This document shows, one piece after another, positions 17,106 to 30,967 of a stretch of DNA of 64,000 bases. Both the position numbers and the translations under genes were made by a program. This stretch comes from Kitasatospora sp. NBC_00374 (lineage in GTDB: Bacteria; Actinomycetota; Actinomycetes; Streptomycetales; Streptomycetaceae). Numbering within the stretch: the first letter of the stretch is position 1; each line of letters begins with the position of its first letter. The notes beneath the pieces were generated by a model. It was given only the letters and a program-made list of their open reading frames with translations. It did not search any database and was not told the DNA's origin. The stretch lies in NCBI RefSeq assembly GCF_041434935.1, contig NZ_CP107964.1, forward strand, positions 7,423,001-7,487,000. The letters are read 5' to 3'.

Positions 17106-17116
17106 GTGATGGCTCC

Positions 17117-18634: not shown

Positions 18635-18726
18635 GCCTTCGAGCCCGCGGCGCCCAGCGCCAGCGCGACGCCGAGCCCGCCGTCGGACTCGAGGATGCTC
18701 CTACGGGTGGGGTGGTGCGCGGTCAA
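18631..18726 (-). CDS. 31-residue leader ORF coupled to M23 peptidase gene
   Basis: TTG start at 18726, 5 nt after a near-perfect AGGAGG ribosome site, then 31 codons and TGA overlapping the GTG start of the M23 gene (GTGA). The peptide is rich in Gly/Ala and carries TRRSILESDGGLGVALALG, which resembles a Tat-type signal cut short. It could be a translational-coupling leader, a remnant of an older exported gene, or a small peptide. No peptide-modification genes lie nearby. The strong ribosome site and exact overlap make it more than chance. Confidence 0.5.
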   Translation of the reverse strand: MTAHHPTRRSILESDGGLGVALALGAAGSKA

Positions 18727-18788
18727 CGTGACCTCCTGAGGGCGCGTGGCGGCGGCCCGTCCGGACCGCCGGGTGTCGAGCGGTTGGG

Positions 18789-18841
18789 ACGGTAGTCACC
18801 CACCGCGCGGCGCAGAACCCGGAACCATACGGACTGACAGG
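18789..18841 (-). promoter_or_regulatory. Promoter of lectin-hydrolase operon with 28-bp element shared with SARP gene
   Basis: On the minus strand TCCGTAT-N3-TCCGGGT (within 18814-18841) precedes a -10-like TACCGT (18794-18789) by 19 nt. The 28-base element matches the one upstream of the SARP gene (11229-11256) at 22 of 28 positions. The first codon of the operon (18726) lies about 60 nt downstream of the -10. Confidence 0.45.
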
Positions 18842-18912
18842 AGCGGACCAACCGCCGAGACTGTTGACGCGCTCTCCGGCCTCGGCCTCGTGCCGGTGAC
18901 CGTCCGGCAGTC

Positions 18913-18936
18913 GTTGGGCCACCCGGTCGGCCCAAC
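18913..18936. promoter_or_regulatory. Perfect 8-8-8 inverted repeat, operator candidate
   Basis: GTTGGGCC (18913-18920) and GGCCCAAC (18929-18936) are separated by 8 bases. The repeat lies in the divergent spacer between the lectin-hydrolase operon and the VOC gene, about 50 nt before the VOC start. It could be a dimeric repressor site or a hairpin. Confidence 0.35.
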
Positions 18937-18975
18937 CGCAGCGCGGCACCTCGCGGACCGGTCCGGGTCCGGCCC

Positions 18976-18981
18976 TACCCT
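18976..18981 (+). promoter_or_regulatory. Possible -10 box for leaderless VOC mRNA
   Basis: TACCCT ends 6 nt before the ATG at 18988, and no ribosome site precedes that ATG. A start point at or next to the A of ATG would give a leaderless transcript, common in actinobacteria. Confidence 0.35.
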
Positions 18982-18987
18982 GGCGGC

Positions 18988-19338
18988 ATGATCAACGGTG
19001 CGCACGTCATCATCTACAGCCGCGACGCCGAAGTGGACCGGGCGTTCTTCCGGGACACGCTGGAGTGTCCGAACGTCGATGCGGGCGGCGGCTGGCTGAT
19101 CTTCGAGCTGCCGCCGGCCGAGCTCGCCGTGCATCCCGCGGACGGCCCGGAGACGCAGGAGCTCTACCTGATGTGCGATGACATCGACGCCACCGTGAGC
19201 GACCTGGCGGCCAAGGGCGTGGAGTTCACCCAGCCGGTCACCGACGCCCGCTGGGGACGGCTGACCAGGTTCCGCCTGCCGGGTGGCAGCGAGGTGGGCA
19301 TGTACGAGCCCCGCCACGAGCGACCCAGCGGTCGGTAG
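18988..19338 (+). CDS. VOC superfamily glyoxalase-like protein
   Basis: 116 residues, a single glyoxalase/bleomycin-resistance fold. It has an INGAHVIIYSRDAEVDRAFFRDTL opening, an ELAVHPAD strand with His, an ELYLMCDDID linker, and an RFRLPGGSEVGMYEPRH ending with a Glu-position metal-ligand-like pattern. It could be an antibiotic-binding or small-molecule lyase-type protein; the function is not predictable. It is a single gene on the plus strand, probably leaderless, convergent with the SWIM gene. Confidence 0.85.
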   Translation: MINGAHVIIYSRDAEVDRAFFRDTLECPNVDAGGGWLIFELPPAELAVHPADGPETQELYLMCDDIDATVSDLAAKGVEFTQPVTDARWGRLTRFRLPGGSEVGMYEPRHERPSGR

Positions 19339-19454
19339 CAGCGACGCCGCGGCGGTCCGCGCCCCGCTGCCGGCTCCGGGCGATGTCGAGCGCCGGCAGG
19401 TCCGACTCGCGGCCTTCCCCGCTCTGCGTGCCGCACGGTGCACGGGGTTGTCGC

Positions 19455-21482
19455 TCAGGGGTAGTCGGAGGTCCCCCGGTGCGCCTCGATGGTGACGGCG
19501 ACCCGGACGACTGAGTCCGACCACGCACGGGCGGCGGCGTCCGGGTGGCCTGCGCGCATGGCGTGGGCGAGGGCTCGCAGGAGCTCGGCGGTGGTGGCCA
19601 GGCCGCCTCGGTTCAGCCGGGCGGCGGCGCGGTCCAGGCGGGTGAGAGTGGGGCCGTCCGGGTGGCGCAGGCCCCGGTGGGCGGTGTCGGCGAGAGCCGC
19701 GAGCGCCTCGGCGAGGTCGGCGGCAACGAGGCCGGCCGACGGCGGCGCGGCGGGGGTGAGGGCGGTGGACCCGGGGCCCGGGGCGAGGTCGGGGACCACG
19801 ACGGTGTCGCCCGCGAGGAGCGCGGCGGGTTCCAGGACGGTGCGGCCCGCGGCGCTCCGGACGGTGGCGCTGACGTGGGTGACGGTGCCCGTCCCGAGCG
19901 CCGCGGCGAGGGCGTCGAGGGCGCCGGGGCAGGCCGGGTCGTGGGTGGCGGCGAGGGTGGCACGGTTGCCGACCGCGTCGCGGACGGCAGCCTCCAGGCG
20001 CTGCTCGGCCGCGTCGTACCGGATCCCCTCGACGGCGGAGAGGCGCACCACGTGCAGGGACTCGGCGGCGATGCGGGGCCGGATCAGCCGCGGTGGCCGG
20101 CCCTCCAGGGTGCGCAGGTGGGCGTCGAGGTCGGTGAGCAGCAGCGGGGCGGGCAGGTCGGTCCAGGAGCTGCCGACCGGGGTGACGGTGGTGGCGGTGG
20201 TCCGGCCGCGGCCGAGGCGGAGCTCACGGGCGGCGCTGCGGACCGCGCTTTCGCTGACCACGTTGCCGCCGGCGAGGGCGTCGAGGCGGTGCCCGGCGAT
20301 CCGGCGGGCGCCCAGCGCGTGCCCGGTAGGCGGACGGCCGTCGGCTGGGACGTCCCAGCTGCGGCGGAGCACCAGGACGGTCCCGGCGGCGGGGTGGGCG
20401 AGGTAGACCTCGGCGGACCGGGTCGTTGCGGTGCCGCGGATCCGGCAGCCCAGCGCGGTCAGGCGGACCCGGCGCAGCAGGGTCTCGGCGGCCTCCCGGA
20501 CACCTAGCACCTCGGACCGCGACGCGCCCGGGTGGGCGGCGGCGCGGTGACGGGCGTGCAGTTCGGCCAGGAGCAGTGCCAGCTCCTCGGGCCGGTGGTC
20601 GGCGGCCCGGGTCGCGTACGCGTCGAGCTGGCCGATCAGGTCGGCGACCAGGTCGGCCGGCCAGTGCAGGGAACGGTCGGCGAGCTCGCCGCGCACCCGG
20701 TGGAAATCGGCGGTGAGGACCGGTCCGGCGTGCACGGCGCCGTCGAGCACGAGCTCGCGGGCGAGATCGAGGGCGGCGTCCAGGACCGGCGGGATGCCCG
20801 ACTCGGGCTCGGAACGGTCGCCGAGCGTGACGGTCGGGCGGCCGTCGGCAGCCCGGAAGGCCCAGACCGCGAGGGCGATCATCTCGCCGCGGCGGTCCTG
20901 CGCGGCGTCGGTGACCGCGAAGCCCAGCTCGCCGGGGACGGGGAACCGGACCGTGCAGGCGGCGAGTTCGGCGACCGGCTGTGGATCGTCCGGGCGCGCG
21001 TGGTGCAGCCGCGCGGTATAGCCGCGCTCCAGCGTCCGGCGGGCGGCGGCCACGGCGCGGGCACCGACGGCGGCGGTCAGCGCCTCGTCGTCCAGCGTGC
21101 CGGGGGACCAGGCGGGGGCGGGCGCGGGGGTGTCGGGCGTGCGGGGGGTATCGGAAGTGGCGGGGCCGGGGTGAGGACCCGGTGGGGCGGGGGCATCGGC
21201 GGCGGCACGCTGGTGGGCGAGGACCAGCGCGATCCGGTGGCGGCACACGCCCGGGGCGCCGCAGGTGCAGCTGCCGCCGTCCAGCCCGGTGCCCGGCGGC
21301 AGCACGACGGTGTTGCCGTCGGGACAGGTGCCGCGCAGCGTGCCGTCCGGGTCGAGGCCGGGCACCGGCCCGTCGCCCGCGGCGACCTCGCGGGCGGCGC
21401 GCTTCACCAGGCCGCGGTTGGCGAGTGCGGCGAGCGTGTCGGTGTCCAGGGCGAGCAGATCGGCCCGCGTCGCGGCGGTCAT
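19455..21482 (-). CDS. SWIM zinc-finger protein, last gene of YehI-YehQ-like operon
   Basis: 675 residues. The N-terminal region has a SWIM zinc finger with ligands Cys72, Cys74, Cys80 and His82 (CTCGAPGVCRH). The long remainder is Ala/Arg/Leu-rich and mostly helical, without a known catalytic motif. SWIM fingers bind DNA or protein. It corresponds to E. coli YehQ, which is also linked to a VWA protein and a MoxR ATPase. Its ATG (21482) overlaps the stop of the VWA gene as ATGA, making it the distal cistron of the five-gene operon. Confidence 0.88.
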   Translation of the reverse strand: MTAATRADLLALDTDTLAALANRGLVKRAAREVAAGDGPVPGLDPDGTLRGTCPDGNTVVLPPGTGLDGGSCTCGAPGVCRHRIALVLAHQRAAADAPAPPGPHPGPATSDTPRTPDTPAPAPAWSPGTLDDEALTAAVGARAVAAARRTLERGYTARLHHARPDDPQPVAELAACTVRFPVPGELGFAVTDAAQDRRGEMIALAVWAFRAADGRPTVTLGDRSEPESGIPPVLDAALDLARELVLDGAVHAGPVLTADFHRVRGELADRSLHWPADLVADLIGQLDAYATRAADHRPEELALLLAELHARHRAAAHPGASRSEVLGVREAAETLLRRVRLTALGCRIRGTATTRSAEVYLAHPAAGTVLVLRRSWDVPADGRPPTGHALGARRIAGHRLDALAGGNVVSESAVRSAARELRLGRGRTTATTVTPVGSSWTDLPAPLLLTDLDAHLRTLEGRPPRLIRPRIAAESLHVVRLSAVEGIRYDAAEQRLEAAVRDAVGNRATLAATHDPACPGALDALAAALGTGTVTHVSATVRSAAGRTVLEPAALLAGDTVVVPDLAPGPGSTALTPAAPPSAGLVAADLAEALAALADTAHRGLRHPDGPTLTRLDRAAARLNRGGLATTAELLRALAHAMRAGHPDAAARAWSDSVVRVAVTIEAHRGTSDYP

Positions 21483-22621
21483 CGGCCGAGCCTCTCGGCG
21501 ACGAAGTCGGCGAGCATCCCCGGCGTCATCGCACCCACGTGCGCGCCGGCGTCCGCGAGCTGCCCGGCCAGCTCGCGGTCGTACGCCGGGGCGGCTTCCT
21601 CGTCCAGCGCGGCGAGACCGAGCACGGTGGCGCCCTGCCCGGTCAGCGAGCGGACGGTCCGTAGCAGCCGGTACCGGTCGCCGCCCTCATAGAAGTCGCT
21701 GATCACTGCGAGGATCGTGCGCCGCGGATTCTCCACCAGCCCGGCTGCGTAGTCGACCGCGCGGGCGATGTCGGTGCCGCCGCCGAGCTGGACCCGCATC
21801 AGCAGCTCCACCGGGTCGGTGACGTCGGACGTGAGGTCCACCACCTGGGTGTCGAAGGCGACCAGATGGGTCTTCAGCCCGGGAAGGCTCCACAGGCAGG
21901 CCGCGGTCACCGCGGAGTGGATCACCGAGCCCACCATCGAACCGGACTGGTCGACGAGCAGGATCAACTGCCACTGCTCCAGATGCCGGCGGGTGCGGGA
22001 GCGGAAGTGCGGACGCTCGATCAGGATCCGCCGCTCGGCGGGACTGTAGCGGCCGAGATTGGCCCGGACGGTGCGGCGGAAGTCGAAGTCGCGGGCCAGC
22101 GGGCGCCGGCTCGGGCGCGCCGACCGGGCACCCGTGAACGCCTGGCGCAGCTCCGGGGTGAGGCGTTCCATCAGCTGCCGGACCACCGCGGCCACGATCC
22201 GGCGGGCCTGGCCGAGCAACTGCTCGTTCATCAGGTGCTTGGTGCGGAGCACCGCGCGCAGCAGGGCGGCGCTCGGCTCGACCCGCTCCAGCACGGTCGG
22301 GTCGGTGACGATCTCCTCGATCCCGTAGTGCTCGACGGCGTCACGCTCCAGACGCTCGATCGTCTCGCGGGGGAAGAGACGGTGGATGTCGTCCAGCCAG
22401 TCGACTGCGGTGACCCGGGACGGCTCCAGGCCGGCGCTGCGGACGCCGCGGCGGCCGAGGTCCTCGTCGCGGCCGTACAGCCACTCCAGGGCGGCGTCCC
22501 GGGCGGCGCCGTCGGCGCTCGGGCGGCCGGTCCACGGCTCGGCGGGGGAACCGAGGACCAGGCGCCAGCGCTCCAGGGCGGGGTCGGGTGCCGTTCTGGG
22601 GGCCGGCTCGGGCGAGGTCAC
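21479..22621 (-). CDS. VWA (CoxE-like) domain protein of YehP type
   Basis: 380 residues. The C-terminal half is a von Willebrand A domain with an intact MIDAS motif D224-Q-S226-G-S228 and a downstream Thr/Asp (GGGTDIARAVDYA). The N-terminal half is helical. VWA proteins of this kind work with MoxR AAA ATPases, as in CO dehydrogenase maturation (CoxD/CoxE) or the VWA-MoxR pairs. The start is GTG at 22621, overlapping the DUF5682 stop (GTGA). The frame stays open far upstream, but that part is DUF5682 read in another frame. Confidence 0.9.
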   Translation of the reverse strand: MTSPEPAPRTAPDPALERWRLVLGSPAEPWTGRPSADGAARDAALEWLYGRDEDLGRRGVRSAGLEPSRVTAVDWLDDIHRLFPRETIERLERDAVEHYGIEEIVTDPTVLERVEPSAALLRAVLRTKHLMNEQLLGQARRIVAAVVRQLMERLTPELRQAFTGARSARPSRRPLARDFDFRRTVRANLGRYSPAERRILIERPHFRSRTRRHLEQWQLILLVDQSGSMVGSVIHSAVTAACLWSLPGLKTHLVAFDTQVVDLTSDVTDPVELLMRVQLGGGTDIARAVDYAAGLVENPRRTILAVISDFYEGGDRYRLLRTVRSLTGQGATVLGLAALDEEAAPAYDRELAGQLADAGAHVGAMTPGMLADFVAERLGR

Positions 22622-24903
22622 CGGGCGCTCCGCAGGCCGTGGCGGTCGAGCAGGGCGGTCACGTTCTCCTCCAGGGCGCGGGCGGCGGCCAGGTGCAAGG
22701 GGTCGGCGGTGGTGCGGAGCAGGGCGCGGGCGGAGCCGCGCAGACCGCGGCGCTCGATCAGACGGCGGGCGATCCGCTCGCGCTCGCGCGGCGGGAACCA
22801 GGCGAAGGCCTGGCGCAGGGCCGGGAGGGCGATGAGGAACTCGGCGTCGGTGAGGTCGGCGAGGACGGAGTCCACGGCGGCCAGCAGGGAGCCGTCGCCC
22901 GAGTCGGCGGTGACCTCCTCCCGGGCGAGGGCGAACAGGCCGCCCAGCCAGTCGCCGAGCGTCCGGGGGTCGTCCGTGGCGTGGAGGGCGTCGGCGAGGT
23001 CGGGGGTGGTGGCCTCGGTCGGGGCGAGGGTGAGGTGGAGGCCGTGGGCGGCGCCGCGGAGGTCGGCGGGGGCGTGGGGGTCGCGGGTGATGCGGAGGGC
23101 GAGGGCGGCGGTGTCCCCGGGGGTGACGGTGAGGTGGTCGGGGGCGTGGCGGAGGGCGTCGCGGACGGCGGCGAGGGCGGTGAGGCGGGCGGGGTCGGTG
23201 CCGGAGCGGCCGTGGACGCCCTCGACCAGCCACAGGACGCGGCTGACCGCGCCGTCGATGACGGCGGCCAGCAGTGGGCTGCGGGCGGTGCCGTACACGC
23301 GGTCGTGCCGCCAGAGGCCGAGAGCGGTGGAGAGGACGGCGCCGAGGGCGCCGGGGTCGGGGTGGCGGGTGAGGGTGGCGGTGAGCGTGGTGAGGAGGCG
23401 GTCGGTGAGGGCGGTCGCGCCGCACAGGACGGTGTCGAAGAGCAGGGTGGCGAGTTGAGCGTCGGTGGGCCCGGTCGTGCGGGCGCGTTCGGCGAGGACG
23501 GTGGCGGCGGCCTCGTCGAGGGTGGCGCCGTACGCGCCCGCCTCGATCAGGGCGGCGTCGCGGCCGGTGTCCGGTCCGGCGTCCCAGCGTTCGGTGGTGA
23601 CCGGGTCGGCGCCGTGGGCAGGTCCGGCGGTGCGGTGGCGGCCTGGCACGCCGAGGACGCGCAGCCGGTGCAGGGTCCGGCTCGCCGTCAGGCCCTCCTC
23701 GGTGGTGAGATCGCAGGTCAGCGGGCGGGTGCCGGTGGCGCCGATCGCGGCGAGCCGGGCGGCGCTGTCGTGGACCAGCGGCGGGGCCGGCGTGTCCGGG
23801 TGCAGCCGCCCGGTGCGGGTGCCGCTGCACGCAGCGACCATCTCGACCACCACCGGATGGCTGCCCGGCGCCAGCGGGGCGCGCTCGGACCAGGGCAGCG
23901 GCTGGCTCAGGTCGTCCTTGATCAGGGCGCCGGCCAAACCGTCCAGCACGTCGGTACGGGCCGGCACCGCATGGCCGCGCAGGGCGGCGAGGCCGCCGGT
24001 GAGTGTGGCGGCGGCGACCAGGTCGGCGGTGGAGACCGGGTGGCGGCGGACGCGCAGGCGTGAGACCACGGACTGCCGCAGGTGGTCGGCGGCGGCCTCG
24101 GGGCCGTCCTCCCACAGCCGCTGGTAGTAGGCGGGCGAGGGCATGCCGGACTGGTAGCCGGCGAAGGCGTCGAGCTGCCGGAACGAGTACGGCACCAGGT
24201 AGCTCCCGGAGACGGCGCCGGGCGGCGGCGCGGGCAGCCCGGGCCGGCCGGGCGCCTGGGCCGGCTGCGCGGCGAGGGCGCGCAGGGTGGGGGTGTGGAA
24301 GCCGCCGCCCACCACCAGCACGGTCGCGGTCCCCGCCTCGGCGAGGACGGCGCGGACCCAGTCCGCCATGTACGCCTCGCGGGCCTGGTCGTCCTCGTCC
24401 GCCTCGGCGTCGCCGCGGACCAGGTCGAAGTAGGCGTCCAGGCGTTCGGCGAGCCCGTCCGCCGGCGCCACCTCGAAGAGGCCGTCCCACAGGGCGTCCA
24501 CCGAGCCGGCGCCGAACCGCTCGCAGAGACGGGCGGTGGCCTCGGCGTACCGGGCCTCCGCGTCGGCGTACCGGTTGGCGCGCAGCTCGAACGCCGGGTG
24601 CCAGGACGGCAGGTCGACGAAGAGCACCTCCGCGCCGGCCGCCCGCCCCTCCTGCAGCGCCACCCACTCGGGCGAGTAGTCGCACAGCGGCGCCCAGGTG
24701 GTCGCGGTGCGCTCGGCGTCGCGGTAGTGGCTGAACACGGCGATCGGCAGCTCGTGGCCGAGGGCCAACTCGTCCAGCCGGCCGTTGAGGTCGGCCGGGC
24801 CCTCGACGAGCACATACGCGGGCCGCAGCCGCCGGACGGTGTCCGCCACCAGGCGGGCGCAGGCGGGGGAGTGGTGACGGACCCCGAGGAAGACCGCGGG
24901 CAT
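22618..24903 (-). CDS. DUF5682 family protein (YehM-like)
   Basis: 761 residues. The N-terminus matches DUF5682 (GVRHHSPACARLVADTV, then VLVEGPADLN and ELPIAVFSHY), a region that looks like a Rossmann-type or TraB/EreA-like module (LFVDLPSWHPAF). The rest is alpha-helical with no motif I can assign. It is part of the conserved yehM position between the MoxR ATPase and the VWA gene. Its ATG shares a base with the upstream stop (TGATG at 24905-24901), so the proteins are probably made in fixed ratio. The function is unknown. Confidence 0.85.
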   Translation of the reverse strand: MPAVFLGVRHHSPACARLVADTVRRLRPAYVLVEGPADLNGRLDELALGHELPIAVFSHYRDAERTATTWAPLCDYSPEWVALQEGRAAGAEVLFVDLPSWHPAFELRANRYADAEARYAEATARLCERFGAGSVDALWDGLFEVAPADGLAERLDAYFDLVRGDAEADEDDQAREAYMADWVRAVLAEAGTATVLVVGGGFHTPTLRALAAQPAQAPGRPGLPAPPPGAVSGSYLVPYSFRQLDAFAGYQSGMPSPAYYQRLWEDGPEAAADHLRQSVVSRLRVRRHPVSTADLVAAATLTGGLAALRGHAVPARTDVLDGLAGALIKDDLSQPLPWSERAPLAPGSHPVVVEMVAACSGTRTGRLHPDTPAPPLVHDSAARLAAIGATGTRPLTCDLTTEEGLTASRTLHRLRVLGVPGRHRTAGPAHGADPVTTERWDAGPDTGRDAALIEAGAYGATLDEAAATVLAERARTTGPTDAQLATLLFDTVLCGATALTDRLLTTLTATLTRHPDPGALGAVLSTALGLWRHDRVYGTARSPLLAAVIDGAVSRVLWLVEGVHGRSGTDPARLTALAAVRDALRHAPDHLTVTPGDTAALALRITRDPHAPADLRGAAHGLHLTLAPTEATTPDLADALHATDDPRTLGDWLGGLFALAREEVTADSGDGSLLAAVDSVLADLTDAEFLIALPALRQAFAWFPPRERERIARRLIERRGLRGSARALLRTTADPLHLAAARALEENVTALLDRHGLRSAR

Positions 24904-25985
24904 CAGCCGGCCAGCAGGTGGCGGGCGTCGTGCACGGCCTGCCAGTGCGGGCCGCGCCGCCGCGGGACCCGCTGCTCCAGGTAGCGGCGCAGCCGGGCCA
25001 GGTCCTCCGGGCTGTCCTTGGCCGCGGTGCCGGCCAGGCTGGCGACCAGGTCGGCCGCGTTGCCGGCCTCGCTGCGTAGGTACCAGCCGCGCAGCCCGAC
25101 CGCGTGGGCGACCGAGACCGCCTCGGCGGTGCTCATCACCGCGGACGGGCGGTCGCCGCCCTCGCCGGCCCGCAGCTCGCGGAAGGCGGTGACCAGCACC
25201 TCCAGCAGGTCCCGGTCGGGCGCCGCGGTCACCCCCGACCGGCGTAGCAGGTTCCCGGACTCGGCCTCGACCAGGGCGAGTTCGGTGTCCAGGTCGGGGA
25301 TCGGGAAGACGGTCTCGAAGTTGAACCGGCGCTTGAGCGCCGAGCTCATCTCGTTCACCCCGCGGTCGCGGGTGTTGGCGGTGGCGATCACGTTGAAGCC
25401 CTGCTTGGCGAAGACCATGCCCTCCGGCCCGTCAAGCTCGGGGATCGCCACCACCCGCTCCGAGAGCAGGGACAGCAGTGAGTCCTGCACCTCCAGCGGG
25501 CAGCGGGTGATCTCCTCGAACCGGACCACCCGGCCCTCGGCCATGCCGCGCAGCATCGGCGCGGGCACCAGCGAGCGGGTGGAGGGGCCCTCCGACACCA
25601 GCAGGGCGTAGTTCCACGAGTACTTGATCTGGTCCTCGGTGGTCGCCGCGCCGCCCTGCACGGTCAGCCGGGAGGTGCCGCTGACCGCCGCCGCGATCAG
25701 CTCCGACAGCAGCGACTTCGCGGTGCCCGGCTCGCCGACCAGCAGCAGGCCGCGGTTGGTGGCCAGGGTCACCAGGGCACGCTCGACCAGCGCCGGATCG
25801 CCCACGAACTTGCGGGCGATGCCGGCCGCCTCGTCGCCGACGATGAACCGGCGGGCCGCGCGCAGGCTCAGCTCCCAGCCCGGCGGGCGGTGGTCGCGGT
25901 CCTCGGCGTGCAGCGCCGCCAGCTCCTCGGCGTACCGGACCTCGGCGGGCGGCCGTTGGAGGTGCTCCTCGGCGGTGGTGGTCAT
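24903..25985 (-). CDS. MoxR-family AAA+ ATPase (YehL-like)
   Basis: 360 residues. Walker A is GEPGTAKS at 84-91, Walker B includes RFEEI at about 155-159, sensor 1 is NVIATANTRDRG, and an arginine-finger region (ALKRRFNFE) follows. MoxR ATPases act as chaperones that remodel or load cofactors onto partners, usually with a VWA protein. I chose the ATG at 25985 because GGGAGGG precedes it. A GTG at 26039 overlapping the WGR/DUF4132 stop (GTGA) would add 18 residues and is a real alternative. It is the second gene of the operon. Confidence 0.9.
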   Translation of the reverse strand: MTTTAEEHLQRPPAEVRYAEELAALHAEDRDHRPPGWELSLRAARRFIVGDEAAGIARKFVGDPALVERALVTLATNRGLLLVGEPGTAKSLLSELIAAAVSGTSRLTVQGGAATTEDQIKYSWNYALLVSEGPSTRSLVPAPMLRGMAEGRVVRFEEITRCPLEVQDSLLSLLSERVVAIPELDGPEGMVFAKQGFNVIATANTRDRGVNEMSSALKRRFNFETVFPIPDLDTELALVEAESGNLLRRSGVTAAPDRDLLEVLVTAFRELRAGEGGDRPSAVMSTAEAVSVAHAVGLRGWYLRSEAGNAADLVASLAGTAAKDSPEDLARLRRYLEQRVPRRRGPHWQAVHDARHLLAG

Positions 25986-26035
25986 GGCGGCCCTCCCGGG
26001 GTGGTCCGTGCGGCTGTCGGTGGGGTGGCTCGTCG

Positions 26036-29000
26036 TCACGGCGTGGTCAGCTCGGTGAGGTCGGCGATCACCTCGGAGGCGGTCACCGGGTCGAGCTCGG
26101 CGAAGGTCGGGAAGGTCCGGTTGTGAGTCCAGTAGTCGCCCGGGCGGATGTCGAGCCACACCGTCTCCACCCGCTGCTCGGGATACACGTCGTGCATACC
26201 GACCGCGATGCCGTGCTCCGGGGCGAGCACCACATAGCGGTCGGGTCCGACCCGGCGGGACAGCCAGCGCTCCACGCCCGCGTCCTGCGGCGCGCCGCGC
26301 TGCCAGCCGCGCCGCTCCATGCCGACCAGCCGGGCGGTGGGCAGCGCCGGACCGTTCTCGAAGCGGGTCAGGCGGTGGCCGGCCCGCTCCTCGTCGGTCA
26401 GCGCGTACACCGGGCGGCCGAGCTGACGGAACGGCTGCAGGATCTCGTAGTCGGCGAACAGCTCCGACCAGGCGGCGAGGTCGTCGCAGAGGAGCAGCGG
26501 GTGGGCCAGTCGGACAGTCGCCCCGGCGGGCAGCGCGAACACCTCGTCATGGACGTCCGCCAGGGTCCGATCCTCGGCGACCCGGAACGCGGTCGCCGTG
26601 CCGTCCGCCTCGGCCAGCCACACCAGCCGGCGCACCAGGTGCCACAGCAGCGGATGCCCCACGAAGAGCTGGTCGAACTCCTCCGCCGTCCACGACCGCC
26701 GGGCGACCATCGCGTCCTCCAGACGGCGGATCTGGTCCCCCGCCACCGTGCGGACGTCCTTCTTCAGCGCGGCGAAGCGCTTGCGCTCGGCCGGCGCCAG
26801 CTCGGCGTCGTCCCGCGCCCCCGGGGCCGGCAGGTCCTTGCGGCGGGCGCCGTCCGAGTCCAGCACGTACGGCTTGAGCTGCTCGTCGAAGCCCACCGTG
26901 AAGGTCCGGGTGCCGTAGTCGACGACGGTGGTCCCGTCGGCGTCCAGCCCGAAGTCCGGCACCAGACGGTCCGAGAGCTGCTCCCCGGACAGGCCGAGCC
27001 CGGCCGCCACCTCGGCGATCTTCTCCTGCGCCCGCGCCTTGAGCGCCTTGAACTTCACCCGCTGCGCGATACCGTGCAGGTGCAGCAGCGCGACGTCGCT
27101 GCCGATCGCGGCCAGCACCTCCAGGCCGTCCACCGCGCGGTGGTGCGCCCCCTCGCCCGGCCACGCCCGGAGCACCGGCGTCAGTCGGCGGACCGTCTCG
27201 TCGTCCCCGAGCCGGCCGAGCGCGTGCAGCGCCCACCCGTCCTGGGACGGCATGCCGGCCATCCGCCACTGCTCGAACACCGCCCAGCCGAGGTCAGTCA
27301 GCGACTGCGGCTCGCACACCTCGGCCACCTGGTCGAGGCCCGGGTAGAACGCCCCGGGCTTGGACAGCGCGAGCATCGTGAGCACGTGCCGCACCATCTC
27401 GGCGGGCAGCGCGCCCTCGCCGCCGCGAACCAGCAGCTGCGGCAGCATCATCGGCTCCGCCCAGTCACCGAGCTGGGGCAACTTCGCCGGCAGCACATTC
27501 ACCAGCGGGTCGGCCGAGAGCAGCGCGCCCACCACCTCATCCGCCTCCGGTCCGTACTCGCCGGCCACCGCACGCACCGCCGCGACGCCCTGCGCCGCAC
27601 AGATCAACCGGAGGGCGTGCTCGGCGCTTCGCCGGGCCACGCCCGCCTTCCCGACCGCGGCAGGAACCAGCAGCCGGGCCGCGTCCAGCCCGTGCCGGGC
27701 GAACCATGAGCGCGCGGTGTCCCCGGCCGACTTGAGCCGGATCAGCCAGTCCGCCATCATCTCGGCCACCCGGACGTCCAGGTACGGCAGCAGCAGCGCC
27801 GCGTGCGCGGCCGGGTTCTGCAGCGCGGCGGCCCGCATCGGCTCGAGCGCGTCCGGCCCGAAGCGGGCGGCGACCCGGCGCAGCGCGCCCATGGCGTCCC
27901 AGATGTACTCGCCGCCCCGCCACTGCGAGATCAGCGGCCGGCCCAGCTCCTCGTCGCCGTACGCGAACAGCGCCAGCTCCTCGTGCCGGTTGGAGTGGCG
28001 CCGCGCGTCGCCGGACCGCCCGTTCGTGGCCCGGATCGTGCCGGCGATCCGCTGCCAGTCGGCGTCCGACCAGCGCGCGTACCAGGACTCGGAGACCGCC
28101 CACGCCTCCCGCTCACCCGGCAGCCAACGCAGCTGCGGCCCTTCCGGCGCGGTGAGGCCGGTCAGCACGCGGGGCTTGGCGGTGGAGCGCGGCCGGGTCC
28201 ACGGCGGGCTGGTGAACAGCTCCGGCAGCGAGTCGGGACGGACATCCGACACCCGGTCGCCCGGATCGGTGAGCGGCTCGACCACGGCCGCCTGTTCCGG
28301 CGTCAGCTCCGGCAGCAGCTCGAGCGCGGTCGCGCGGTGGGCGGCGACATGGGCGGTGAGGAGCTGGCGGGCGAGCCGCTGCGCGGCCGCATCGGCGGAC
28401 GCCGCCGCAGCCTCCGCGAGGAGGCGCAGAGCACGCCGGGGGAAGCGGCGCATGGCTGCCACCAGGGCGCCGCGGGCCGCCTTGCCGTTCTCCTGATGGG
28501 TCAGCAGCCCCCGAAAGCCCTCGTCGGAGGGAAGCTCGGCTATCGCGTTGAGCAGCTGCTTCTGCTTGTCGCTGTAGAGGTAGTTGTTGGCCAAGGCATG
28601 CAGCCACAGCGGCGCGGCGCCGCCTTGGAGTCCCTCCGCCACGGTCGCGATGATCTCGGCGGACCAGCCGTCCCAGCCCAGGTCCGGCGGTTGGGGGAGC
28701 TTCTCCAGCGGCTCGGCCGAGGAGAGCGAGCACAGCAGCATCGACCACTCGGCCGAGCCCAGCCGCGCGGCCGACTTCGCGCACTCCTCGGCCCAGTCGG
28801 ACTCGGACGGCACCAAGTACGCCGTCACCACCAGGCGGGACAGGTCGGTCCGGCATCCGGCCAGGGCCTCGACCACCGCGCGGTGGGTCTCCTCGTCGCA
28901 CGCCGCCAGCAGCGACCGGACGCGATCCGCGGCGGGGCGGTACGCCGCGGGCGTCCGGCCGGTCGCGGCGTACCGGACGCGCGGGTGGACAGCGCGTGAG

Positions 29001-29662
29001 CCGTTCCAGTCGGTCTCGACGGCCACGGTGAACAGCTCGACGGTGGCCCTGGCCGCGAACGGCAGGCCGAACTCCGCGACCCAGGCGTCCACGGCCATCC
29101 GGATCCTGCTGTCGGTGGAGACCGCGAACGCCGCGGTCAGCACCGCCGCACCGAGCGGGTTCTGACTGCCGGAGTGGTGAGCACGGGCAGCCGCGACCAG
29201 GTCCGTCTCGCTGCGGTCCGAGGTGAGCGCCTGCTCCAGCCAGGCGTCCACCTGCCTCAGCGTGGCGTGGTACCCGTCCACCGCGTTCCTCACCGGCGCG
29301 GCCGGCGGGCGGGGGACGCCGCCCCGGCGGGGGATCAGGACCCGCCGCCAGGCCTCCGGCAGGACGAAGGTGTCCTCGTCGACCGGGGCGTCCACGGGCT
29401 CGGGGGCGGCGGCCGGCGAGGTCGCCGCGACGGGCCGCGGGGTGGGTGCAGAGCCGGTGCCGGTCTCGCGGTAGCCCTTGCGCTCCTTCTCGGCGACCGT
29501 CCTGGCGAAGTGTGCCTGCGCCGCCTCCGAGGTCGGGAACTCCTTGCTCTGCTCCCGCCCGTCGGTGCCGGACCGGCCGTAGCGCACGGTCACCACGGCA
29601 CCGTCGACCGCGGCCTCCCAGAACTTGTCCGAGCCGCCCTCGGTGAACTCCCAGCGCCGCAC
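26036..29662 (-). CDS. WGR-DUF4132 protein (YehI/MolR-like), first gene of MoxR operon
   Basis: 1208 residues. The N-terminal WGR domain (about 1-75, RRWEFTEGGSDKFWEAAVDG and VRYGRSGTDG) is a nucleic-acid or PARP-type binding module. A long helical HEAT-like middle follows, and a C-terminal DUF4132 region (about 880-1110: DGTTVVDYGTRTFTVGFDEQLKPYV; WTAEEFDQLFVGHPLLWHLVRRLVW) ends in HPLLLCD. E. coli MolR/YehI have this architecture and also sit next to a MoxR ATPase. The GTG start at 29662 follows GGCGGAG. It is probably the promoter-proximal cistron, with 504 bp of non-coding DNA upstream. Confidence 0.9.
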   Translation of the reverse strand: MRRWEFTEGGSDKFWEAAVDGAVVTVRYGRSGTDGREQSKEFPTSEAAQAHFARTVAEKERKGYRETGTGSAPTPRPVAATSPAAAPEPVDAPVDEDTFVLPEAWRRVLIPRRGGVPRPPAAPVRNAVDGYHATLRQVDAWLEQALTSDRSETDLVAAARAHHSGSQNPLGAAVLTAAFAVSTDSRIRMAVDAWVAEFGLPFAARATVELFTVAVETDWNGSRAVHPRVRYAATGRTPAAYRPAADRVRSLLAACDEETHRAVVEALAGCRTDLSRLVVTAYLVPSESDWAEECAKSAARLGSAEWSMLLCSLSSAEPLEKLPQPPDLGWDGWSAEIIATVAEGLQGGAAPLWLHALANNYLYSDKQKQLLNAIAELPSDEGFRGLLTHQENGKAARGALVAAMRRFPRRALRLLAEAAAASADAAAQRLARQLLTAHVAAHRATALELLPELTPEQAAVVEPLTDPGDRVSDVRPDSLPELFTSPPWTRPRSTAKPRVLTGLTAPEGPQLRWLPGEREAWAVSESWYARWSDADWQRIAGTIRATNGRSGDARRHSNRHEELALFAYGDEELGRPLISQWRGGEYIWDAMGALRRVAARFGPDALEPMRAAALQNPAAHAALLLPYLDVRVAEMMADWLIRLKSAGDTARSWFARHGLDAARLLVPAAVGKAGVARRSAEHALRLICAAQGVAAVRAVAGEYGPEADEVVGALLSADPLVNVLPAKLPQLGDWAEPMMLPQLLVRGGEGALPAEMVRHVLTMLALSKPGAFYPGLDQVAEVCEPQSLTDLGWAVFEQWRMAGMPSQDGWALHALGRLGDDETVRRLTPVLRAWPGEGAHHRAVDGLEVLAAIGSDVALLHLHGIAQRVKFKALKARAQEKIAEVAAGLGLSGEQLSDRLVPDFGLDADGTTVVDYGTRTFTVGFDEQLKPYVLDSDGARRKDLPAPGARDDAELAPAERKRFAALKKDVRTVAGDQIRRLEDAMVARRSWTAEEFDQLFVGHPLLWHLVRRLVWLAEADGTATAFRVAEDRTLADVHDEVFALPAGATVRLAHPLLLCDDLAAWSELFADYEILQPFRQLGRPVYALTDEERAGHRLTRFENGPALPTARLVGMERRGWQRGAPQDAGVERWLSRRVGPDRYVVLAPEHGIAVGMHDVYPEQRVETVWLDIRPGDYWTHNRTFPTFAELDPVTASEVIADLTELTTP

Positions 29663-30166
29663 AGCTCCGCCCCTCTCCTCGAACGGTTGATCAGGTGAGG
29701 AACAGTAGCGAGGCCTACCGACAGGCCGACCTCCGGACCGCCCGCGTCGCGGCCCGGACCGCCGGCGCGATCAGCCCCACCAGAGGAACCAGCTGTGTAC
29801 GTCGACCAGTGACTCTGCGTACTCGGCGAGGCTGCAGGCCTCCTGGAAGACGTTGTCCGGACGGGCGGCCGCGTCGCAGGAGTACACGGTGACCAGGTCG
29901 CGCCATTTGCTATCCGGACCTGGGCGGCTCGGATGCTCCTGCGGATCACGGATCACGGAACTCCGGGCGCTGGCAGGAATGGCGCTGTCCCCACCATGCG
30001 GTTCACTTCTGAGGGCTGAGCCCACCGCCCGTCTTGCCGCGATCGGGAACCTGCTGGCCGAGTCGTCTCCGGCGCACGAAATGGCTCAGATGAGACAGGG
30101 CACTGAGGTCGCAGTCGTCACCGCCGTCCTCTTGATGCTGATCAACTGTCCGCTTTGGCAGTCGAG
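29663..30166. other. 504-bp spacer upstream of MoxR operon
   Basis: No convincing gene is present. A minus-strand frame at 29771-30025 (84 codons, with WRDLVTVYSCDAAARPDN and ending VDVHSWFLWWG) has no good ribosome site and no family I know; it could be a small gene or a relic. A tandem GGATCAC repeat sits at 29943-29956. The promoter of the WGR/DUF4132 operon should lie in the left part. Confidence 0.4.
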
Positions 30167-30967
30167 TTATCCGCGATCGAAGACCGCCGTGACGGGCGCG
30201 TGGTCGGACCAGCGCTCGGCGTGGGAGGCGGCGCGCTCGACGTACGCCTCGACGCACCTGGCCGCGAGGCCCGGACTCGACATCTGGTAGTCGATCCGCC
30301 AGCCGGCGTCGTTGTCGAAGGCGCGGCCGCGGTAGGACCACCACGAGTACGGGCCGGGCTGGTCGGGGTGCAGGGCGCGGACCACGTCGACGTAGCCTGT
30401 CTCGTCGAGGACGCGGGTGAGCCAGGCGCGCTCCTCGGGGAGGAAGCCGGCGTTCTTCTGGTTGGTCTTCCAGTTCTTGAGGTCGTCCTCGCGGTGGGCG
30501 ATGTTCCAGTCGCCGCAGACCAGGACCTCGCGGCCCTCGGCGGCGGCGCTGGTGCGGAGCCGGTCGAGGTGGGCGATGAACTCCGCCATGAAGCGTTCCT
30601 TCTCGTCCTGGCGGTCGGTGCCGACCTCGCCGGACGGGAGGTAGAGGCTGGCGACGGTCAGGCCCGGCAGGTCGATCTCGACGTATCTGCCCGAATTGTC
30701 GAATTCCTCCGAGCCGAACCCGATCACGCTGCGCTCGGGCGGCCGCCGGGAGAGCACCGCCACCCCGGCCCGGCCCTTGGCCGCGGCCGGCGCCCAGACC
30801 GCGTGCCAGCCCTCCAGCTCCAGCAGCTCCGCGGGGATCTGCCCGGCCTCGGCCCGTACCTCCTGCAGGCAGACCACGTCTGCCTTGGTGGCGGCCAGCC
30901 ACTCGACCAGGCCCTTCTTGGCGGCGGCCCGGATGCCGTTCACGTTCACTGTCGATACCACGATCAC
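30167..30967 (-). CDS. xthA: Exodeoxyribonuclease III, AP endonuclease family
   Basis: 266 residues of the ExoIII fold. Metal-binding and catalytic motifs are visible: NVNGIRAA near the N-terminus, CLQEVRAE (metal Glu), a SLYLPSGEVG strand, CGDWNIAHREDDLKN (catalytic Asp/Asn) and a C-terminal SDHAPVTAVF (active-site His-Asp). It removes AP sites and 3' blocking groups in base excision repair. The GTG at 30967 starts the usual VIVVSTVNVNGIR opening. The ribosome site is weak (GCGGGG). It is monocistronic. Confidence 0.9.
   Translation of the reverse strand: MIVVSTVNVNGIRAAAKKGLVEWLAATKADVVCLQEVRAEAGQIPAELLELEGWHAVWAPAAAKGRAGVAVLSRRPPERSVIGFGSEEFDNSGRYVEIDLPGLTVASLYLPSGEVGTDRQDEKERFMAEFIAHLDRLRTSAAAEGREVLVCGDWNIAHREDDLKNWKTNQKNAGFLPEERAWLTRVLDETGYVDVVRALHPDQPGPYSWWSYRGRAFDNDAGWRIDYQMSSPGLAARCVEAYVERAASHAERWSDHAPVTAVFDRG

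What the first reader, a model, noticed from the sequence alone, without database searches (positions are those of the whole stretch)
19455..29662. Actinobacterial YehI-YehL-YehM-YehP-YehQ operon: a five-part MoxR/VWA machine of unknown function
Seen: five minus-strand genes in the order WGR-DUF4132, MoxR AAA ATPase, DUF5682, VWA (intact MIDAS) and SWIM zinc finger, joined by stop-start overlaps (TGATG, GTGA, ATGA) and one 50-nt gap with an alternative GTGA overlap. Known: MoxR ATPases and VWA proteins act together as chaperones, and E. coli carries an equivalent gene set around yehI-yehQ whose role is not settled. Inference: a nucleic-acid-sensing (WGR, SWIM) remodelling complex, possibly in stress response or conflict biology.
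Basis: partly seen in the sequence, partly recalled or inferred. Interest (0 to 1): 0.75.

Follow-up and report, generated by a model that had tools for sequence, protein, structure and literature searches.

The report
Five-gene MoxR machine with Tiki-fold domain
Soil actinomycetes and E. coli share a five-gene ATP-driven protein machine of unknown job, and one of its unexplained proteins turns out to carry a domain built like the Tiki/ChaN/erythromycin-esterase group of hydrolases, which gives the machine a testable chemical activity.

Summary
Confirmed: window 29662-19455 (minus) is an operon of WGR/DUF4132, MoxR ATPase, DUF5682, CoxE-type VWA and SWIM proteins, orthologous in order to E. 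coli yehI-L-M-P-Q (30/63/37/58/28% identity). In 60 yeh-type loci, MoxR lay just upstream of DUF5682 in 59 of 59 testable, VWA followed in 58 of 58, SWIM in 57 of 57. The addition concerns DUF5682. Its first 250 residues fold confidently (pLDDT 92). In the second-look aligner the 12 best PDB rows are a Tetrahymena subunit of unconfirmed family (three rows), then ChaN, HopBA1, erythromycin-esterase-like proteins and RRSP, the TIKI group. It shares with most TraB proteins the pattern G..H / E / R / G..H. It is therefore probably a hydrolase, or a former one, gated by MoxR-VWA. A sister operon swaps DUF4132 for DUF5691, and DUF5682 and VWA share one frame in nine loci. WGR is missing from 45 of 78 judgeable YehI copies, E. 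coli's included, so nucleic-acid sensing is not the core. YehI is the part that multiplies. yehM is found in 5284 of 5426 E. coli genomes, unlike an ordinary accessory defence system. Activity and substrate are untested.

The parts
26036..29662 (-). YehI-type protein, 1208 aa: N-terminal WGR, long middle part, C-terminal DUF4132; proposed recognition/adaptor part
   Evidence: Pfam WGR 3.8e-15 and DUF4132 4.9e-62; 30% identical to E. coli YehI over the C-terminal two thirds
29459..29650 (-). WGR domain (residues 5-68), variable: present in 33, absent in 45, unjudgeable in 15 of 93 YehI copies
   Evidence: relaxing the threshold added none at a YehI start; solved protein 2ra8 matches residues 4-68 at 1.4e-7
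26303..26851 (-). DUF4132 domain (residues 938-1120)
   Evidence: second DUF4132 elsewhere in the genome, C1:798562
24903..25985 (-). YehL-type MoxR AAA+ ATPase, 360 aa; Walker A GEPGTAKS, Walker B with Glu-Glu (RFEEITR) where Asp-Glu is usual (recalled)
   Evidence: AAA_5 2.9e-36; 63% identical to E. coli YehL; R-x-E-E invariant in 99 of 99 rows
22618..24903 (-). YehM-type DUF5682 protein, 761 aa
   Evidence: DUF5682 3.5e-94; 37% identical to E. coli YehM; AlphaFold model pLDDT 91.9, pTM 0.88
24154..24903 (-). TIKI/ChaN/Ere-type domain (residues 1-250) with conserved G7..H10, E34, E144, R175, G200..H203
   Evidence: domain model pLDDT 91.7, pTM 0.90; PDB matches; conservation
22654..23766 (-). 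C-terminal helical-repeat (HEAT/importin-like) half of DUF5682, residues about 380-750
   Evidence: structure comparison rows spanning 383-750
21479..22621 (-). YehP-type VWA protein (CoxE-like), 380 aa, MIDAS intact
   Evidence: VWA_CoxE 8.3e-55; 58% identical to E. coli YehP; MIDAS in 92 of 92
19455..21482 (-). YehQ-type SWIM zinc-finger protein, 675 aa
   Evidence: 28% identical to E. coli YehQ; alignment of 20 chosen sequences
21237..21269 (-). SWIM ligands C72, C74, C80, H82
   Evidence: invariant in 20 of 20

Best explanation
The operon encodes an ATP-driven protein-remodelling machine built around a probable hydrolase. SHOWN: five co-transcribable genes, orthologous to yehI-L-M-P-Q and kept together across phyla; a MoxR ATPase with intact Walker A; a VWA protein with intact MIDAS; and a DUF5682 protein whose N-terminal domain is predicted, with high confidence, to have the TIKI/ChaN/Ere fold with a conserved His/Glu/Arg/His set, on a helical-repeat scaffold. 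INFERRED: (1) the YehI part (WGR-DUF4132, often several divergent copies), with the SWIM protein, recognises or tethers the target; (2) the VWA protein grips a peptide or acidic residue of the target through its MIDAS metal, or clamps DUF5682; (3) MoxR ATP hydrolysis remodels the VWA-DUF5682-target assembly; (4) the TIKI-type site of DUF5682 then cuts a peptide or ester bond, so that the MoxR-VWA pair acts as the ATP-dependent gate of a hydrolase. My estimates: fold assignment about 0.9; DUF5682 still catalytic about 0.55; the full gating scheme about 0.4.
For: Operon and orthology. Linkage in 60 yeh-type loci: MoxR within 1.5 kb upstream 59/59 testable, VWA after DUF5682 58/58 (55 within 1.5 kb, 3 later), SWIM after VWA 57/57, YehI present 54/58. 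Fold: domain model pLDDT 91.7. Its 12 best VIA-align rows are a Tetrahymena complex IV subunit (three entries, Z 10.0, 9.8, 9.2), ChaN 2g5g (8.7), HopBA1 5t09 (8.2), EreC 6xcs (6.8), three RRSP-numbered chains (6.8, 6.2, 6.0) and the Bacillus proteins 2qgm, 3b55 and 2rad (6.7, 6.5, 6.4); the next row is 4.9. PMC6254334 (abstract, passages and section 7 read) names PMT, HopBA1, BcR135 (3b55) and ChaN as TIKI superfamily and shows 2His/2Glu plus an Arg to be essential in RRSP; that 2qgm and 2rad belong with BcR135 rests on their titles and on recall. Motif: G, H, E, R, G, H are invariant in 14 TraB rows and match DUF5682 G7, H10, E34, R175, G200, H203, invariant in 55 rows, with R-to-G 25 and R-to-H 28 in both; 0 of 200,000 in each of two nulls. 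In the 22 DUF5682 sequences not gathered by the motif: H10 22/22, E34 22/22, R175, G200 and H203 21/21 with letters, G7 18/22. Coupling: DUF5682 and VWA share one open frame in nine distinct loci among 128 locus records scanned: system B of seven genomes, L069 and L122. YehI: 25 of 65 loci hold two or three C-terminal halves.
Against: No activity is known. ChaN binds haem (entry title) and PMT lacks the motif, so a TIKI fold does not prove catalysis. RRSP's fourth residue, a Glu two before the first His, has no counterpart in DUF5682, though the TraB consensus lacks it too. Profile-profile comparison is weak: DUF5682 against TraB 5.7-13.5% probability, E 0.002-0.007, against Ere 3.4%; unrelated controls reach 1.0%, and TraB against Ere, both accepted members (recalled), only 0.1%. 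Plain Foldseek has no row at E below 0.001. The top three rows are a Tetrahymena subunit whose family I could not confirm by sequence. The 14 TraB rows were a choice among 23 loci; over all 22 usable rows the first His and the Glu hold in 18, and L172-L174, left out of the 14, lack the first His. The motif null was framed after seeing the alignments, and 54 of the 55 DUF5682 rows were collected with a pattern holding G..RHH.
Confidence: 0.45

Rival explanations
1. A maturation chaperone in the manner of RavA-ViaA, NorQ-NorD or CbbQ-CbbO: MoxR and VWA activate or load a cofactor into a client, and DUF5682 is a non-catalytic scaffold or cofactor carrier like ChaN.
For: The passages read of PMC3893208 say that MoxR proteins, as far as known, help specific protein complexes to mature or become active. 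NorQ is among the MoxR matches in solved structures (0.0027) and midasin is the strongest (3.6e-12). ChaN, a haem binder by its entry title, is the best named match of the domain.
Against: The conserved set includes the Glu and Arg that are needed for RRSP hydrolysis. No client gene stood out among conserved flanking frames of 101 loci, but these were clusters of stop-to-stop frames judged by eye, not annotated, so this is weak.
Confidence: 0.27
2. An anti-phage or inter-microbial conflict system, a cousin of the MoxR-vWA ternary systems, in which YehI senses the invader and DUF5682 is the effector.
For: Same MoxR-VWA core as the ternary systems of PMC7159879 (passages), whose third component often carries a peptidase (PMC10907252, passages). 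YehI is duplicated and divergent. E. coli yehI alleles vary more than yehM: 2054 of 5285 records at 90-95% identity against 52 of 5286.
Against: Near-core in E. coli: yehM in 5284 of 5426 genomes (5166 with 80% or more of the gene), against 5374 (5374) for the neighbour btsS. No PADLOC match except the WGR stretch. No VMAP-C in the five proteins, although the same genome has three VMAP-C matches elsewhere. No defence neighbour was recognised among flanking clusters, by eye only.
Confidence: 0.15
3. A DNA-damage or nucleic-acid-linked stress machine: WGR and SWIM place the remodeller on nucleic acid.
For: In Deinococcus radiodurans a DUF4132 gene and a WGR gene belong to the DdrO DNA-damage regulon and their products rise with mitomycin C (PMC8533742, passages). 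An endonuclease/exonuclease/phosphatase-family gene lies directly upstream in the window.
Against: WGR absent from E. coli YehI and from 45 of 78 judgeable copies. Second SWIM motif lacking in 7 of 7 actinomycete rows. Whether the Deinococcus genes belong to a MoxR operon was not tested. No relative of the upstream exonuclease-type gene was found in 100 loci with flanks of up to 10 kb (tblastn, E 1e-5).
Confidence: 0.13

Closest known systems
Escherichia coli yehI-yehK-yehL-yehM-yehP-yehQ
   Same: All five proteins orthologous and in the same order and strand; E. coli K-12 even has a second, broken YehI relative (yehH) upstream.
   Different: E. coli YehI has no WGR, YehQ has two SWIM motifs instead of one, and yehK lies between.
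YehL subfamily of MoxR ATPases (one of seven listed in PMC3893208, passages)
   Same: MoxR is 63% identical to YehL itself.
   Different: No function is assigned to that subfamily in the passages read; here its partners and a Glu-Glu Walker B signature in 99 of 99 rows are documented.
MoxR-vWA ternary conflict systems (Kaur et al. 2020, PMC7159879, passages)
   Same: MoxR plus VWA plus a third, larger, often hydrolase-bearing protein.
   Different: No VMAP-C in the five proteins; third part is DUF5682 with a TIKI-type fold; near-core in E. coli. The paper's main text holds none of YehL, YehM, WGR, SWIM, TIKI or DUF5682; its supplements were not searched.
TIKI/TraB/ChaN/erythromycin-esterase superfamily
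   Same: Predicted fold and conserved His/Glu/Arg/His set of the DUF5682 N-terminal domain.
   Different: Joined to a helical-repeat scaffold and linked to a MoxR-VWA pair; no activity known.
Sister operon SWIM-DUF5691-MoxR-DUF5682-VWA (found here; Pfam names only)
   Same: MoxR, DUF5682, VWA and a SWIM protein.
   Different: DUF5691 in place of WGR-DUF4132, and a different SWIM protein family; 30 of 102 loci (one of them also with a DUF4132), none of which holds YehQ.
RavA-ViaA, NorQ-NorD, CbbQ-CbbO, midasin
   Same: MoxR-type AAA+ working with a MIDAS/VWA part (recalled, and PMC3893208 for RavA-ViaA).
   Different: No DUF5682, SWIM or DUF4132 partner (recalled); midasin is the strongest sequence match among solved structures (3.6e-12).

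Membership tests
Yeh-type five-gene operon (E. coli yehI-L-M-P-Q) | All five orthologues, same strand and order | tested here: met
Yeh-type five-gene operon (E. coli yehI-L-M-P-Q) | DUF5682 groups with the E. coli-type clade rather than with the other two DUF5682 copies of the same genome | tested here: met
   tree of 84 rows: window within a 60-row clade (100) that holds E. coli; L039 and L040 (own genome) outside
MoxR AAA+ ATPase | Walker A, sensor Asn and arginine-finger motifs | tested here: met
   invariant or nearly so in 99 rows; Walker B reads Glu-Glu, not the usual Asp-Glu (usual form recalled)
VWA/CoxE protein | MIDAS DxSxS...T...D | tested here: met
   92 of 92 rows
TIKI superfamily (DUF5682 N-terminal domain) | Shared core fold | tested here: met
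   predicted model only; of the 12 best rows, 9 are ChaN, HopBA1, Ere-like or RRSP chains with Z 6.0-8.7, the other 3 an unconfirmed Tetrahymena subunit; next row 4.9
TIKI superfamily (DUF5682 N-terminal domain) | Conserved GxxH / E / R / GxxH residues | tested here: met
   G7 is Pro in 4 of 22 independently gathered sequences, and the extra Glu of RRSP is lacking
TIKI superfamily (DUF5682 N-terminal domain) | Detectable sequence homology | tested here: inconclusive
   hhalign probability 5.7-13.5% against TraB, 3.4% against Ere; controls up to 1.0%, TraB against Ere 0.1%
TIKI superfamily (DUF5682 N-terminal domain) | Hydrolase or protease activity | not testable with these tools
   needs purified protein
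MoxR-vWA ternary conflict systems, VMAP class | A VMAP-C protein as third component | tested here: not met
   Pfam scan of all five proteins shows none; the model PF20028 is held and has three matches elsewhere in the same genome, none at the DUF5682 loci
MoxR-vWA ternary conflict systems, beta-propeller class | bpMoxR-type MoxR over the curated cut-off | tested here: not met
   21.5 bits against a cut-off of 27
MoxR-vWA ternary conflict systems, iSTAND and FtsH classes | iSTAND or FtsH component | tested here: inconclusive
   no such name in the Pfam scan of the five proteins; whether an iSTAND model is in the library was not checked
Known anti-phage systems (PADLOC-DB 2.0.0) | Match of the core components to a defence model | tested here: not met
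   only the WGR stretch of YehI matches WGR_XIII, 30.7 bits over 77 residues; none for DUF5682, SWIM, DUF5691 or E. coli YehI up to E 1

The most novel reading that the evidence does not exclude
A previously undescribed class of ATP-dependent hydrolase: a MoxR ring and a VWA adaptor gate a TIKI-fold enzyme carried on a helical-repeat scaffold (DUF5682). Exchangeable, multiplying recognition proteins (WGR-DUF4132 or DUF5691), together with a SWIM protein, choose what is cut. In its several forms it occurs in at least six bacterial phyla and in most E. coli, yet its substrate is unknown.
Probability: 0.3. Interest if true: 0.85.

Novelty: new variant of a known kind. Interest (0 to 1): 0.62.

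Why it matters
The YehL branch is one of seven MoxR subfamilies and, in the passages seen, has no function. Giving its central partner a hydrolase-type fold with four named residues turns 'function unknown' into a mutational test in E. coli K-12. It also means that TIKI-type domains, known from Wnt control, haem binding, antibiotic inactivation and bacterial effectors, may work under ATP-driven control inside ordinary bacteria.

Tried and rejected
Considered and rejected: (a) a chance run of neighbours, rejected by the linkage counts. (b) A mobile or phage-borne island. One weak phage hit to DUF5682 was found. 40 of 72,556 plasmid records carry a relative of the MoxR, and several of the 15 listed are chromosome-sized. 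In the DUF5682 tree the Streptomycetaceae and Glycomycetaceae rows of the yeh-type clade each form one group while Pseudonocardiaceae are split, so descent with some transfer is possible. Five PHROG families match YehI, YehM (two), YehP and YehQ strongly; which records they come from was not followed. (c) WGR as the defining feature, rejected (the WGR profile was built from the same 33 copies it then found, but a relaxed search added none at a YehI start). (d) Molybdate regulation through the old molR name: only the remark in PMC8533742 was seen; not tested.

Led nowhere: profile searches of DUF5682 and YehQ against solved structures gave only helical chance matches or nothing. Foldseek with the full-length model put the Tetrahymena subunit first (E 0.075) and otherwise mostly HEAT-type and other helical proteins, so the domain was folded alone. 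No sigma-70-like promoter or terminator was found in 18300-30400 (actinomycete promoters are poorly covered). System B of this genome (L040) has a 5-kb stretch between DUF4132 and MoxR with no Pfam match but that of the MoxR itself. A hhalign run in global mode was set aside for the local runs; it gave 16% for DUF5682 against TraB, 0.05% against Ere, and under 0.4% for the controls. A broad paper search on TIKI terms held 124,077 papers, mostly noise, and 20 were listed. PMC10652928 (passage) lists the whole yeh region as deleted in a genome-reduced E. coli; PMC12795559 (passage) reports loss of a stretch with yehM and yehL in Shigella sonnei lineages.

Not in print, as far as searched: DUF5682 and DUF5691 are in 0 papers of the held library. 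Searches on yeh gene names, DUF4132, MoxR terms and TIKI terms listed no paper that, by title, counts or start of abstract, links YehM to the TIKI group; some searches listed only part of their matches (20 of 124,077, 20 of 38, 12 of 28, 40 of 693). Snider and Houry 2006 (DOI recalled) and the two TIKI superfamily papers of 2013 were looked up and are not held, so an earlier notice there cannot be excluded.

Rows left out before counts: A3 holds 58 of the 80 fetched loci (17 near-duplicates or weak rows skipped, 5 not full length); A5 drops four more (L089, L108, L112, L115); A4 holds 20 chosen YehQ sequences; A6 holds 14 of 23 TraB loci, without L153, L157, L159, L169, L171-L175; MoxR and VWA motif counts use the 99 and 92 of 102 loci with 85% profile coverage.

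Full report
What is there. Five minus-strand genes run from 29662 to 19455: WGR-DUF4132 (1208 aa), MoxR (360 aa), DUF5682 (761 aa), CoxE-type VWA (380 aa) and a SWIM protein (675 aa). The MoxR alignment to E. coli YehL begins at residue 6 of the ATG form, which favours the ATG start. The SWIM match is under Pfam's cut-off in this protein, but its ligands are invariant in the 20 relatives aligned.

Kinship. Every protein has an E. coli K-12 counterpart in the same order, yehI, yehL, yehM, yehP, yehQ, with 30, 63, 37, 58 and 28% identity; YehI aligns over its C-terminal two thirds only, the others over nearly their whole length. Of the 60 yeh-type loci among them, MoxR lies within 1.5 kb upstream of DUF5682 in 59 of 59 testable, VWA follows in 58 of 58, SWIM follows VWA in 57 of 57, and YehI is present in 54 of 58. 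These loci were picked by likeness to the window's DUF5682, so the counts describe this clade, not all DUF5682 genes. They come from Actinomycetota, Pseudomonadota, Myxococcota and Acidobacteriota; the sister forms add Bacteroidota and Chloroflexota. Pairwise distances of MoxR, DUF5682, VWA and SWIM proteins are closely correlated over 47 loci (Spearman 0.86-0.94), and YehI less so (0.80-0.81); no unrelated control gene was run, so shared species history may explain much of this. In a tree of 84 DUF5682 rows, the 36 named actinomycete rows of the E. coli-type clade form one group with the window, which sits beside a Kitasatospora at 90% identity; L049, an actinomycete locus that also holds all five genes, falls in a sister group. 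In an even sample of 296 genomes of the phylum, DUF5682 of any type occurs in 21 and DUF4132 in 15. By comparing coordinates in those two calls, 11 of the 19 DUF4132 hits lie within 20 kb of a DUF5682, one cannot be placed because its genome is fragmented, and seven lie apart, so DUF4132 also lives alone.

Three forms in one genome. The own genome holds three MoxR-DUF5682 loci: the window; a form at C1:0.79 Mb in which DUF5682 and VWA are one open frame, with a short DUF4132 gene nearby; and a form at C1:3.63 Mb with a SWIM-type and a DUF5691-type protein upstream of MoxR on the opposite strand, matched by the profiles of the sister operon (Pfam names DUF5691 and SWIM in two other loci). Over all 102 loci examined by profile, 56 hold I-L-M-P-Q, 30 hold SWIM-DUF5691-L-M-P (one of these also a DUF4132), 4 hold L-M-P-Q, 7 hold L-M-P only and 5 are partial; none holds both kinds of SWIM protein. 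So a DUF4132 or DUF5691 protein and a SWIM protein usually accompany a constant MoxR-DUF5682-VWA core. DUF5682 and VWA share one open frame in nine distinct loci, including a yeh-type Kitasatospora (L069), which points to physical contact.

The new point: DUF5682. The full-length AlphaFold model is confident (pLDDT 91.9, pTM 0.88) and has an alpha/beta domain followed by helical repeats. The first 250 residues folded alone (pLDDT 91.7, pTM 0.90) match, in the second-look aligner, a Tetrahymena complex IV subunit (Z 10.0), ChaN (8.7, 156 residues, 5.1 A), HopBA1 (8.2, 145 residues, 3.7 A), EreC (6.8), RRSP (6.8) and Bacillus Ere-like proteins (6.4-6.7). The first row outside these is at 4.9. 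ChaN, HopBA1, BcR135 and RRSP are TIKI superfamily according to PMC6254334. I could not confirm the Tetrahymena subunit's family by sequence. Plain Foldseek alone would not have settled it (best E 0.007). As an independent check, 14 diverse TraB/GumN proteins (A6) have G16, H19, E45, E145, R218, G243, H246 and L257 invariant. DUF5682 has G7, H10, E34, E144, R175, G200 and H203 invariant in 55 rows, with G-to-H 3, R-to-G 25 and R-to-H 28 in both families and H-to-E 24 against 26. The constellation appeared in 0 of 200,000 label permutations and 0 of 200,000 random placements. Three cautions apply. The test was framed after the fact. The G..RHH part was a selection pattern for 54 of the 55 rows. 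And the 14 TraB rows were a choice: over the 22 usable rows the first His and the Glu hold in 18, the Arg in 19, the last His in 18, and the divergent rows L172-L174 lack the first His. In the 22 DUF5682 sequences gathered without the pattern, H10 and E34 hold in 22, R175, G200 and H203 in 21 of 21 with letters, and G7 in 18. Profile-profile scores stay weak (5.7-13.5% against TraB, 3.4% against Ere; controls up to 1.0%; TraB against Ere 0.1%). The Pfam model PF18934 matches only from residue 17-20 on, so it leaves out the GxRHH motif, which may explain why the kinship was not seen.

The other parts. MoxR of this branch has R-x-E-E in Walker B in 99 of 99 rows. Its strongest match among solved structures is midasin (3.6e-12), ahead of NorQ (0.0027). 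YehI is the variable part: 25 of 65 loci hold two or three C-terminal halves, mostly in tandem but in a few loci apart or on the other strand, and the best identity of a copy to a sibling copy of its locus ranges from 36 to 84%. WGR is found in 33 of 93 copies, absent in 45, and cannot be judged in 15. In E. coli, yehI alleles are more diverse than yehM. YehQ carries a second SWIM motif in 13 of 13 non-actinomycete rows and in 0 of 7 actinomycete rows (read by eye).

Function. The likeliest reading is a MoxR-VWA gate on a TIKI-type hydrolase with exchangeable recognition proteins. The gene set, linkage, predicted fold and residue conservation are shown; catalysis, substrate and gating are inferred. 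Near-core status in E. coli (yehM 5284 and yehI 5283 of 5426 genomes, 5166 and 5177 with at least 80% of the gene; neighbour btsS 5374 in both counts), no PADLOC model beyond WGR and the lack of VMAP-C, which the same genome has elsewhere, speak against an ordinary accessory defence system. Flanking genes were compared only as clusters of open frames judged by eye. Some E. coli and Shigella lines do without the genes. A DNA-damage link rests on Deinococcus genes carrying DUF4132 and WGR domains (PMC8533742).

Known or new. The E. coli operon and the YehL subfamily are known (PMC3893208, passages). The DUF5682 fold assignment, the sister DUF5691 operon, the shared DUF5682-VWA frames and the variability of YehI and WGR were not met in the searches made, several of which listed only part of their matches, and key subscription papers were not available.

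Noticed in passing
window 15639-18634 (minus): Two adjacent secreted-looking proteins with different heads (M23 peptidase; lysozyme-like SLT_3) and almost identical C-terminal FG-GAP-like halves (82% identity over 404 columns overall), which suggests recent duplication or gene conversion of the tail.
   Followed up: partly
G000 C1:2822384, C1:4829197, C1:1229656: Three VMAP-C matches elsewhere in the genome, so the species probably has MoxR-vWA ternary conflict systems besides its three DUF5682 systems.
   Followed up: no
L003:113-2261 (E. coli K-12 yehH pseudogene): The pseudogene upstream of yehI is a second YehI relative read in two frame pieces, so E. coli also had a tandem pair.
   Followed up: no
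L040 (own genome C1:781001-801000): A system with DUF5682 and VWA in one frame and about 5 kb between DUF4132 and MoxR without any Pfam match on the frames scanned.
   Followed up: partly
L051, L052, L053: A fourth arrangement with VWA before MoxR and a diverged DUF5682 last.
   Followed up: no
Pfam PF18934: The curated DUF5682 model starts matching at residue 17-20 and so omits the conserved GxRHH motif.
   Followed up: yes
window 24903-25985: The MoxR Walker B motif carries Glu-Glu in all 99 rows examined, where Asp-Glu is usual (recalled); possible effect on ATP hydrolysis rate.
   Followed up: partly
PHROG 20839, 30700, 33984, 31592, 29006: Five families of the phage library match YehI, YehM (two), YehP and YehQ strongly, so some record counted as viral may hold this operon; annotated phage records gave only one weak match to YehM.
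   Followed up: partly
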